Part shown: in pieces, positions 42,418 through 44,565 of the stretch | Layout of the letters: each line of letters begins with the position of its first letter | Numbering within the stretch: position 1 is the stretch's first letter | Origin: Solirubrobacterales bacterium | GTDB lineage: Bacteria; Actinomycetota; Thermoleophilia; Solirubrobacterales; 70-9 | Length of the DNA stretch: 51,454 nt | Assembly: GCA_020438445.1 (NCBI GenBank) | Contig: JAGQUO010000004.1 | Coordinates: 1 to 51,454, forward strand | Reading direction: 5' to 3' | Notes under the pieces: generated by a model | Told to the model about the DNA's origin: nothing | The model's input: only the letters and a program-made list of their open reading frames with translations | Database searches by the model: none | Translations under genes and position numbers: made by a program

Positions 42418-43308
42418 TCAGTCCCCGGCGCCGCGGAGGGCGAGCCGCCCGCCGCCCGCGTCGAGCGCCGGCAGGTAGATCGAGATCGTGGTGCCGGCGC
42501 CCGGGATCGAGTTGATCCGCAGATCGCCTCCCGCCCTGCGGGCGATCGAAGCGGCACCCGCGAGCCCGAGACCGCCGCCGCGGTCTTCCTTGGTCGAGAA
42601 GTAGGGCTCGAGCGCTCTGCTCGCGACCTCCGGGCTCATCCCACAGCCCGTGTCTCCGAAGGTGATCCGCACGTGCAGGCCGGTTCCGAGCCGCGCGTCC
42701 CCGGGAGGGACCGGCACGAGCGCGGTGCGGATCGTCACCGCGCCGCCGTCCGGCATCGCGTCGCGTGAGTTGGCGGCGAGGTTGAGGAGGGTGCGCTCGA
42801 GGTCGGCGGCCGCGATCCCGACCCGCGGCAGCACCCCGTCGGAGCGCAGCTCCAGCCGGATGCCGGCGCCGAGTGCCCGCTCGATCAGCTTCAGCGACCC
42901 CCGGATGGCTTCGTCGACCGCGACGGCCGGCCCGCCTGCGGTGTCCCGCCCGGTCGCGACCGCACGCTCATCCGCGATCAGCCCCCGGGTCAGCTCGGCG
43001 CCGCGCAGCGCCGCCTCGCGGATCTCCTCCGCCCGCGTGCGCTGCTCCCCGTCGGCCGCGCCGGCGATCTCCCCGGCGCAGACCAGGATCACCGAGAGCA
43101 GGTTGTTGAAGTCGTGCGCGACGCTCGCGGTCCTGCGGCCGAGCTCCTCCAGCTCGGCGGCGCTCGGCGCCCGCTGCGGCTTCGCCCGCTCCGGGAGCAC
43201 CACCGGCGGCGAGCTCGCGAATCCCGTCACCGGCTCCCAGGGCAGTCCTCCGGCGAAGCGCCGGTCGGGCATCCGGTGGGGGATCTCAGCTGTCGCTTCC
43301 TCGGTCAT
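42418..43308 (-). CDS. Soluble orphan sensor histidine kinase
   Basis: 296 residues. The H-box is RRTASVAHDFNNLLSVI (His65), N-box NLAANSRDAM, G1 DTGCGM, and G2 GGGLGLAGAASIARRAGG, so the kinase core is complete and of the HATPase type found in PAS-linked bacterial kinases. Only 50 residues of Pro/Arg-rich sequence precede the dimerisation helix; there is no membrane segment and no PAS or GAF domain. No response regulator is adjacent. The sensor input must come from a partner protein or be absent. ATG 43308 was chosen from the ATG positions before the conserved core. Confidence 0.85.
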   Translation of the reverse strand: MTEEATAEIPHRMPDRRFAGGLPWEPVTGFASSPPVVLPERAKPQRAPSAAELEELGRRTASVAHDFNNLLSVILVCAGEIAGAADGEQRTRAEEIREAALRGAELTRGLIADERAVATGRDTAGGPAVAVDEAIRGSLKLIERALGAGIRLELRSDGVLPRVGIAAADLERTLLNLAANSRDAMPDGGAVTIRTALVPVPPGDARLGTGLHVRITFGDTGCGMSPEVASRALEPYFSTKEDRGGGLGLAGAASIARRAGGDLRINSIPGAGTTISIYLPALDAGGGRLALRGAGD

Positions 43309-43389: not shown

Positions 43390-44085
43390 TCAGCCCCGCC
43401 CGCCCGCCACCTCGAGCCGGCCCTCGCGATCGCCGACGACCACGATCCGCCCACCGCCGGCGCGTGCCGTCACCTCGGTCCGGAAGGGGGTTGCCCGCCG
43501 CTTCGTCGGCATCCAGTTCCGCTCTGGGGAGGAGAGGACGAGCGTGTGTCCCTTCCGGCCGGCGAATGCGATCCCGGCACCGGGATCCCCGTCCCATACG
43601 GGCACGCCGGCGACGCCGAGCAGGCGAGCCGCCGCCGCCGGCTCGGCCACGACCAGCCCCGCCTCCGAGATGCCGAGCAGCTCGTCGCCCGAGAAGGGCC
43701 CGCCCGCCCCCGGCTCGCCGACTCCGCGGTGGGAGATGAGCTCGACGATGTTCCCGGCGGGATCGGTGAAGTAGACGGCACGGGCCGACCAGGCGGCGAA
43801 CTCGAAGACCGGCCCGCGCCCGCCGCCGAGAAGCTCGGTGGCGCCGGTGATCCATGCGCGCGCGGCCTCGAAGCGATCGGCGGGCACGAGCAGCGCGAAA
43901 TGGTGGAAGGGATCGCCGGCCGAGGGGTGGAGGACGAGCTTCGCACCGCCGACCGCGACCTCGACCCCGCCGTCGGCGCTGCTCACGGTCTCGAGGCCGA
44001 GCCGGGCGCCGTAGAACTCCATCAGCTCCGGAGCCGCCGAGGCCGAGGTCTCCAGCGCGAGGGTCTCGATCTCGAAGTCGTCCAA
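43390..44085 (-). CDS. Two-domain VOC (glyoxalase/bleomycin-resistance) protein
   Basis: 231 residues from a TTG at 44085, one base after the 3' end of the tRNA-Ser gene. The first VOC domain runs from IETLALETSA to FTDPAGNIVELISH (residues about 5-115) and the second, weaker half to the C-terminus (LLGVAGVPVWDGDPGAGIAFAGRKGHTLVLS). VOC proteins bind a metal and act as glyoxalases, dioxygenases or antibiotic-binding proteins. The open frame continues upstream through the tRNA on the same strand, but starting inside the tRNA is implausible. It is probably expressed by processing of a joint tRNA-mRNA transcript. Confidence 0.82.
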   Translation of the reverse strand: MDDFEIETLALETSASAAPELMEFYGARLGLETVSSADGGVEVAVGGAKLVLHPSAGDPFHHFALLVPADRFEAARAWITGATELLGGGRGPVFEFAAWSARAVYFTDPAGNIVELISHRGVGEPGAGGPFSGDELLGISEAGLVVAEPAAAARLLGVAGVPVWDGDPGAGIAFAGRKGHTLVLSSPERNWMPTKRRATPFRTEVTARAGGGRIVVVGDREGRLEVAGGRG

Positions 44086-44086
44086 A

Positions 44087-44175
44087 CGGAGAGGGTGGGA
44101 TTCGAACCCACGAGGCAGCTTTCGCCGCCCACACGATTTCCAATCGTGCACCTTAAGCCACTCGGTCACCCCTCC
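44087..44175 (-). tRNA. tRNA-Ser (anticodon GGA)
   Basis: 89 bases. Acceptor GGAGGGG pairs with CCTCTCC with one G-U pair; the anticodon stem CACGA/TCGTG encloses TTGGAAA, giving anticodon GGA. A long variable arm (GGCGGCGAAAGCTGCC) marks a class II tRNA, and the T-arm GTGGGTTCGAATCCCAC is standard. No CCA is encoded. The VOC gene begins immediately after it. Confidence 0.95.
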
Positions 44176-44220
44176 GGGTGAGGCCCGGAAGATACCGGGG
44201 GAGAGACGGCCGATCGATGC

Positions 44221-44565
44221 TCAGGCGGGTGCGGGAACGTCGCGGCGGGGCTCGAGGCGTCCGCACCAGAGAGCGAACAGGACGATCGCCAGCAGCGCGC
44301 CGAGCCAGTGCAGGCCGACGATCACCGCGAGCAGGCTCGGGAGGCCGGCGAGGATCGCGCCGACCATCGTCATCCCGAGTGGTAGGCGCAGGGCCGTGGC
44401 GGTGATCAGCGAGCAGACGACCCACGCGGACGGGCCGCTGAGCCACCCCCAGTCCTCGAAGAACGAGTGGGGCAGGGCGATCGCGAGGACGATCGAGATC
44501 ACGGCGACACCGGTGAGCTGGATCAGCCCCGAGCGAAGCATCAGCGATCGATCGATCTCGGACAC
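44221..44565 (-). CDS. Small hypothetical membrane protein
   Basis: 114 residues from a GTG, eight bases after the IclR stop on the same strand, so probably one operon. Four hydrophobic segments are separated by short loops, beginning LIQLTGVAVISIVLAIALPHSFF and ending LLAIVLFALWCGRLEP. I do not recognise a family. Linkage to the IclR regulator suggests a role in uptake or regulation for that locus, but this is inference from position. Confidence 0.75.
   Translation of the reverse strand: MSEIDRSLMLRSGLIQLTGVAVISIVLAIALPHSFFEDWGWLSGPSAWVVCSLITATALRLPLGMTMVGAILAGLPSLLAVIVGLHWLGALLAIVLFALWCGRLEPRRDVPAPA

What the first reader, a model, noticed from the sequence alone, without database searches (positions are those of the whole stretch)
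44081..44175. A protein start codon one base after a tRNA 3' end
On the reverse strand the discriminator base of tRNA-Ser(GGA) is 44087 and the TTG of the VOC gene begins at 44085. The tRNA encodes no CCA, so normal 3' maturation (RNase Z cut after the discriminator) would release an mRNA with a one-base leader: a leaderless mRNA made by tRNA processing rather than by a promoter. The VOC domain starts within a few residues, leaving little room for another start. That would tie expression of the enzyme to tRNA synthesis and processing.
Basis: partly seen in the sequence, partly recalled or inferred. Interest (0 to 1): 0.75.

Follow-up and report, generated by a model that had tools for sequence, protein, structure and literature searches.

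The report
Gene start touching a tRNA end
In this uncultured actinobacterium a protein-coding gene begins one base after a tRNA gene ends, so cutting out the tRNA should by itself create the front end of the messenger RNA; this particular pair is unique to this one genome, but the same layout recurs, and is conserved between species, for two widely conserved genes of the lineage.

Summary
On the minus strand tRNA-Ser(GGA) runs 44175 (G1) to 44087 (discriminator G73), encodes no CCA, and the in-frame TTG of a two-domain VOC gene (toxoflavin-lyase-like) lies at 44085-44083, one base later. Homologues begin three codons further in, so the real start must be at or near this TTG; there is no room for a promoter or Shine-Dalgarno site. 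Against it: no relative searched has an orthologue (other genes follow the same tRNA in both same-genus genomes), and TTG is a poor leaderless start, in published mycobacterial assays and in my count for a sister genome. For it: leaderless-type promoters are common in this genus, RNase Z is present in a sister species, and the same architecture is conserved elsewhere in the genome: tRNA-Ile(GAT)-BFN-domain gene (1 nt, TTG, three species; 2-3 nt, GTG, three more genomes) and tRNA-Glu(TTC)-lgt (3-15 nt, five genomes), where most relatives carry a promoter near the gene. Best reading: tRNA 3' processing makes near-leaderless mRNAs in this lineage ('tRNA punctuation'); VOC is a recent, probably weakly translated instance. 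No RNA data exist here.

The parts
44189..44194 (-). putative -10 element TATCTT of the tRNA promoter, 19 nt before G1
   Evidence: read from sequence; the stretch TATCTTCCGGGC is kept in the same position in both same-genus genomes although the flanks differ. The strict sigma-70 scan found no site, so this is a lineage-type -10 only.
44087..44175 (-). tRNA-Ser(GGA), G1 to discriminator G73, no encoded CCA
   Evidence: ARAGORN, Rfam RF00005 match 44087-44175, 55.2 bits; tRNA 100% identical in sister genome G002
44086..44086 (-). single base between discriminator and start codon (would-be one-base leader)
44083..44085 (-). TTG start codon of the VOC gene
   Evidence: only in-frame start codon outside the tRNA consistent with the homologues
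43390..44085 (-). VOC-fold gene, 231 aa plus stop, toxoflavin-lyase-like two-domain protein
   Evidence: PDB 3oul/3pkv toxoflavin-degrading enzyme E about 1e-22 over residues 18-204; PF18029 19.8 bits, below its cut-off of 23.6; homologues 30-33% identical in the family
44020..44022 (-). next in-frame ATG (codon 22), rejected as main start
   Evidence: would remove the first strand conserved in homologues
44167..44169 (-). in-frame GTG inside the tRNA, rejected as start
   Evidence: reading frame is open through the tRNA but would require translating an intact tRNA
44221..44565 (-). upstream 114-aa gene, found just before this tRNA also in G002 and G007
42418..43308 (-). histidine-kinase-like gene downstream of VOC; marks the far side of the variable slot, conserved in G001 and G002
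   Evidence: HATPase_c 8.8e-17; synteny

Best explanation
The VOC gene sits in a variable slot between tRNA-Ser(GGA) and a histidine-kinase gene and has come to lie flush against the tRNA in this species only. It is transcribed by read-through from the tRNA promoter; the endonuclease that makes the mature tRNA 3' end (most likely RNase Z, cutting after G73) also makes the 5' end of the VOC mRNA, 5'-p-U-UUG..., a near-leaderless message translated by the leaderless route that this lineage uses widely. The same arrangement exists at other tRNAs of the genome and is conserved for the BFN-domain gene behind tRNA-Ile(GAT) and lgt behind tRNA-Glu(TTC), so it is best seen as tRNA punctuation arising repeatedly when spacers shrink. 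Because UUG is a weak leaderless start, VOC output is probably low, and no dedicated regulatory link is implied. Shown: geometry, gene identity, species distribution, recurrence and conservation of the layout for other genes, abundance of leaderless-type promoters, RNase Z gene in a sister species. Inferred: co-transcription, the cut, its position, and translation from the TTG.
For: Geometry and start. No terminator found and no separate promoter possible in one base. A -10 inside the tRNA is unlikely: the hexamer at the right distance is CACCCT, and CANNNT is hardly enriched at that distance in 1821 genes of sister genome G001 (12,12,13 against a background of 9.8), whereas TANNNT is (69,93,67 against 5.1). 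So leaderless-type promoters precede about 13% of genes (229 of 1821 at -12 to -14). RNase Z gene in G001, 281 bits against the curated cut-off 252 of NF000801; none of the G001 tRNAs surveyed shows an encoded CCA. Recurrence: BFN start codon is NTG at the same position in 60 of 60 loci; in G000, G001, G002 it is TTG one base after the tRNA-Ile discriminator, in G035, G009, G021 GTG two or three bases after it, while most relatives with a tRNA-Ile further upstream carry a TANNNT and/or SD in the gap. lgt: five genomes with ATG 3-15 nt after tRNA-Glu and no TANNNT at -12 to -16 (0 of 5), against 33 of 48 when the tRNA is far or absent. Published: processing sites lie close to the 3' ends of most tRNAs in P. 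acnes (PMC3848588); a 5' phosphate is needed for leaderless translation in E. coli (review PMC9031893).
Against: TTG was ineffective at a leaderless position in M. smegmatis (PMC4633059), and in G001 TTG genes have the leaderless-type promoter less often (2 of 76 against 227 of 1745, Fisher p = 0.004). UUG does occur in 3% of leaderless mRNAs of P. acnes. The VOC pair is in one genome only. In E. coli-type 3' maturation the first cut falls a few bases downstream, which would destroy this start; P. acnes lacks an obvious tRNase Z. The predicted 5' end of the cut VOC mRNA folds (-19.8 kcal/mol for 60 nt, with the UUG paired), which should hinder leaderless initiation. RNase Z was not searched in the window's own genome. 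For BFN an ATG nine bases further in could serve instead of the TTG.
Confidence: 0.55

Rival explanations
1. Accident of gene packing: the VOC gene was inserted or left next to the tRNA by a recent rearrangement, reads through from the tRNA promoter, but is scarcely translated; the position has no function.
For: Pair found in one genome only; the slot holds an S8 protease in G002 and unrelated opposite-strand genes in G001; TTG weak at leaderless positions; short same-strand gaps are common. The first bases after the tRNA resemble the trailer in G002 (GACGAC-TTCGAGATCG against GACGACATTCGA-ATCG; 3.7% of random pieces score as well locally, 0 of 1000 when anchored at the tRNA end), as if codons 1-3 were old trailer sequence, before the point where homologues start.
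Against: The frame keeps ordinary codon usage for this genus (0.37 bits per codon, between the 10th and 25th percentile of G001 genes and like its neighbours) and an intact fold with invariant residues. The same layout is conserved for BFN and lgt, so it can be functional.
Confidence: 0.3
2. A promoter inside the tRNA gene starts a leaderless VOC mRNA; tRNA processing plays no part.
For: Leaderless-type -10 elements are common in the genus, and a -10 about 13 nt before the TTG would fall in the T-arm and acceptor of the tRNA.
Against: The hexamer there is CACCCT, never seen at -12 to -14 in G001, and CANNNT is hardly enriched there. tRNA sequence is fixed by its own function.
Confidence: 0.08
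3. Translation begins elsewhere: at GTG 44169 inside an unprocessed tRNA-mRNA transcript, or at ATG 44022 in a shortened protein.
For: Both codons are in frame.
Against: The first would need a tRNA to be left uncut and unfolded; the second removes the first strand of the VOC fold that all homologues keep, and the only purine-rich stretch before it (CCGGAGCTG) is too close to the ATG.
Confidence: 0.07

Closest known systems
tRNA punctuation of animal mitochondrial transcripts
   Same: tRNA excision itself creates the ends of neighbouring mRNAs, which are leaderless or nearly so
   Different: There it is the general rule on genome-long transcripts; here it concerns single tRNA-gene pairs in a bacterial chromosome, where most genes have their own promoters. 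Not shown by RNA data.
Bacterial tRNA-mRNA co-transcripts (E. coli secG-leuU, tRNA-tufB; from general knowledge)
   Same: a tRNA and a protein gene share one transcript separated by tRNA-processing enzymes
   Different: in secG-leuU the tRNA follows the protein gene, and in tRNA-tufB the message keeps a leader with a ribosome-binding site (general knowledge); here the cut would leave 1-3 bases before the start codon
Leaderless mRNAs of Actinomycetota (Mycobacterium, Streptomyces, P. acnes)
   Same: message begins at or within a few bases of the start codon; no SD
   Different: known ones start by transcription initiation with 5' triphosphate, mostly AUG or GUG; here the 5' end would come from processing and the codon is UUG
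Leaderless mRNAs made by endonuclease cleavage (MazF model in E. coli, cited in PMC3848588)
   Same: a nuclease rather than a promoter sets the 5' end near the start codon
   Different: that is a stress toxin leaving 5'-hydroxyl ends; here it would be housekeeping tRNA maturation leaving 5' phosphate
Toxoflavin lyase TflA/TxDE (PDB 3oul, 3pkv)
   Same: closest solved relative of the encoded protein, two VOC modules, E about 1e-22
   Different: distant; substrate unknown; metal site not checked residue by residue

Membership tests
Leaderless mRNA (0 to a few bases of leader, no SD) | start codon at or within a few bases of the mRNA 5' end | not testable with these tools
   no RNA data; follows only if the tRNA is cut after G73
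Leaderless mRNA (0 to a few bases of leader, no SD) | no Shine-Dalgarno site before the start | tested here: met
   the 20 bases before TTG are TCGAATCCCACCCTCTCCGT, tRNA sequence without an SD match
Leaderless mRNA (0 to a few bases of leader, no SD) | AUG or GUG start, as required in mycobacteria | tested here: not met
   start is TTG; TTG ineffective in PMC4633059 and under-represented at leaderless positions in G001
tRNA punctuation | gene directly abuts a tRNA on the same strand | tested here: met
   one base between discriminator and start
tRNA punctuation | tRNA excision generates the mRNA end | not testable with these tools
   needs 5'-end mapping and RNase Z depletion
tRNA punctuation | precise 3' endonuclease available (RNase Z, CCA not encoded) | tested here: inconclusive
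   RNase Z gene in sister species G001; CCA not encoded here; RNase Z not searched in the window's own genome
tRNA punctuation | spacing conserved in relatives | tested here: not met
   not for VOC: absent from relatives. It is met for BFN (three g1 species with 1 nt) and roughly for lgt (3-15 nt in five genomes)
VOC superfamily (toxoflavin-lyase-like) | sequence similarity to a solved VOC enzyme over both modules | tested here: met
   3oul and 3pkv, residues 18-204, E about 1e-22
VOC superfamily (toxoflavin-lyase-like) | Pfam Glyoxalase_6 at curated cut-off | tested here: not met
   19.8 bits against 23.6
VOC superfamily (toxoflavin-lyase-like) | metal-binding residues | not tested
   H62, E115 and E141 are invariant among the five aligned sequences, but were not mapped on the structure

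The most novel reading that the evidence does not exclude
A bacterial form of tRNA punctuation: in this genus of Solirubrobacterales several protein genes, among them the widely conserved lgt and a BFN-domain gene, have lost their own promoters and ribosome-binding sites and depend on tRNA 3' maturation to make the 5' ends of near-leaderless mRNAs, tying their expression to tRNA transcription and RNase Z; the VOC gene is the newest recruit.
Probability: 0.4. Interest if true: 0.8.

Novelty: new variant of a known kind. Interest (0 to 1): 0.5.

Why it matters
If 5'-end mapping confirms it, housekeeping tRNA maturation would be a source of translatable leaderless mRNAs in bacteria, a role known to me only from mitochondria. 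It would show how a gene can lose its promoter and ribosome-binding site and still be expressed, and would tie the expression of conserved genes such as lgt to tRNA output. It also gives gene finders a rule: in leaderless-rich lineages a start flush with a tRNA need not be an error.

Tried and rejected
VOC orthologues: none in 60 relatives, 49 family genomes or the genome-contig scan, only 28-36% homologues (up to 40% over a short stretch) elsewhere; those scanned have no tRNA nearby. Plasmid search: three distant hits. Consensus sigma-70 promoters and terminators around the site: none. Order-wide pattern search for tRNA-Glu-lgt: the extra hits in G124, G143, G206, G050 have no tRNA and the reversed control pattern also gave several hits, so only the known genomes count; the G227 BFN hit also has no tRNA. 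Literature: searches combining tRNA processing, RNase Z and leaderless found no bacterial tRNA-punctuated leaderless mRNA in the open library; subscription papers are not covered.

Full report
What is there. On the minus strand the window holds an IclR regulator (45389-44574), a 114-aa gene (44565-44221), tRNA-Ser(GGA) (44175-44087), a VOC gene (44085-43390) and a histidine-kinase-like gene (43308-42418). The tRNA has a 7-bp acceptor with one G-U pair, discriminator G73 at 44087 and no encoded CCA. One T (44086) separates it from TTG 44085-44083.

Is the TTG the start? The reading frame is open through the tRNA back to 44220, with GTG codons at 44169 and 44151 inside the tRNA, then TTG 44085, then no ATG, GTG or TTG until ATG 44022 (CTG, ATC and ATT were also listed). 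Codon usage turns coding-like from about the TTG on. Four aligned homologues begin with M-R/P-I-x-x-L/I-T aligned to codons 4-10 of the query, so a start at codon 1 is needed to keep the first strand, and codon 22 is too late. The protein resembles toxoflavin-degrading enzyme (3oul, 3pkv; E about 1e-22); Pfam Glyoxalase_6 falls below its cut-off.

Is the pair conserved? No. Neither same-genus genome (G001, G002) nor any other relative has an orthologue; the best matches are 28-36% identical (40% over a short stretch in one), and those scanned lie away from tRNAs. In G002 the tRNA is 100% identical and the upstream genes are conserved, but an S8 protease gene follows; in G001 other genes on the opposite strand follow; the histidine kinase marks the far side of the slot in all three. 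The tRNA -10 (TATCTT) is kept in all three. Named contigs that share the tRNA-Ile-BFN layout are Solirubrobacterales or Actinomycetota MAGs, one labelled Conexibacter sp. (order placed in Thermoleophilia, Actinomycetota).

Does the lineage use leaderless mRNAs? In 2.0 Mb of G001 I called 1823 genes with a simple codon-usage caller. TANNNT begins 12, 13 or 14 bases before the start in 69, 93 and 67 of 1821 genes, against about 5 per position further upstream, which places transcription start at the start codon. So about an eighth of genes have a leaderless-type promoter. ATG (136 of 1079) and GTG (91 of 666) are equally frequent there; TTG is not (2 of 76; Fisher p = 0.004). This agrees with M. 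smegmatis reporters, where TTG and CTG were poor leaderless starts (PMC4633059). In P. acnes 3% of leaderless mRNAs have UUG (PMC3848588), so the codon is weak rather than impossible.

Is the machinery there? G001 encodes RNase Z (322 aa, 281 bits on NF000801, cut-off 252; just below the TIGR02651 cut-off), and none of its surveyed tRNA genes shows an encoded CCA. RNase Z cutting after the discriminator and leaving a 5' phosphate is established knowledge for CCA-less precursors; a 5' phosphate supports leaderless translation in E. coli (PMC9031893). The window's own RNase Z was not searched.

The pattern is wider than the VOC gene. A survey of 139 tRNAs led to two conserved pairs elsewhere in the genome. 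(a) tRNA-Ile(GAT) and a BFN-domain gene (PF02577; present in 60 of 61 genomes). In all 60 loci examined the codon three before the first conserved residue block (usually ATG) is NTG (28 ATG, 20 GTG, 12 TTG), so it is very probably the true start. In G000, G001 and G002 it is TTG one base after the tRNA discriminator, the same geometry as VOC; in G035, G009 and G021 it is GTG two or three bases after. These belong to three genera; in two of them (g8, g11) other members have gaps of about 50-90 bases, so the collapse happened more than once or was reversed. Most loci with a longer gap have TANNNT, often TATAAT, and/or an SD in it. (b) tRNA-Glu(TTC) and lgt. In G000, G001, G002, G004 and G007 the ATG lies 3-15 bases after the tRNA end reported by ARAGORN with no TANNNT at the right distance (0 of 5), while 33 of 48 lgt genes with the tRNA far away or absent have TANNNT 12-16 bases before the start. 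In both cases a promoter close to the gene is missing exactly where the tRNA has moved in. In G000 a DJ-1/PfpI-like gene also starts (GTG) two bases after tRNA-Ser(GCT).

Mechanism. Shown: geometry, distribution, recurrence, promoter loss in collapsed BFN and lgt loci. Inferred: read-through transcription from the tRNA promoter, RNase Z cleavage after the discriminator, and translation of the released near-leaderless mRNA. A promoter inside the tRNA is unlikely because the hexamer at the right distance (CACCCT) is not of a type enriched at that distance. For VOC itself the TTG and the predicted folding of the released 5' end argue for weak translation, and the one-genome distribution argues against selected regulation. 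The similarity of the first bases to the G002 trailer suggests that codons 1-3 are old tRNA trailer that became coding when the VOC gene arrived; this is suggestive only.

Verdict. Observation confirmed, interpretation partly supported. The VOC instance alone is modest; the lineage-level pattern is the better finding and is directly testable. All counts depend on a simple gene caller, on ARAGORN ends and on genomes of which many are MAGs or fragmented.

Noticed in passing
L186, L187, L188 (tRNA-Ile to BFN junctions of G000, G002, G001); L191, L203, L207 for other genera: BFN-domain gene starts 1-3 nt after the tRNA-Ile(GAT) discriminator in six genomes of three genera; most relatives have a promoter and/or SD in a longer gap.
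   Followed up: yes
L216, L217, L218, L239, L281 (tRNA-Glu to lgt junctions): lgt starts 3-15 nt after tRNA-Glu(TTC) in five genomes without a TANNNT at the usual distance; most other lgt genes of the order have a leaderless-type -10.
   Followed up: yes
L171 (G000:C223:1000-4500): DJ-1/PfpI-like gene with GTG two bases after tRNA-Ser(GCT); not seen behind that tRNA in G002.
   Followed up: partly
window 43390-44086 against L046 6020-9440 and L047 8610-10500: The slot between tRNA-Ser(GGA) and the histidine-kinase gene holds different genes in each of three same-genus genomes: VOC, S8 protease, or a CrcB-like pair with another gene on the opposite strand. Possible insertion hot spot at the tRNA.
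   Followed up: partly
window 44086-44067 and L046 6020-6037: First bases after the tRNA are similar in G000 and G002 although the genes differ; possibly shared old trailer.
   Followed up: partly
L321-L420 (G001): TANNNT peaks sharply 12-16 bases before called starts (323 occurrences over 1821 genes), so leaderless-type promoters are a major class in this uncultured genus.
   Followed up: partly
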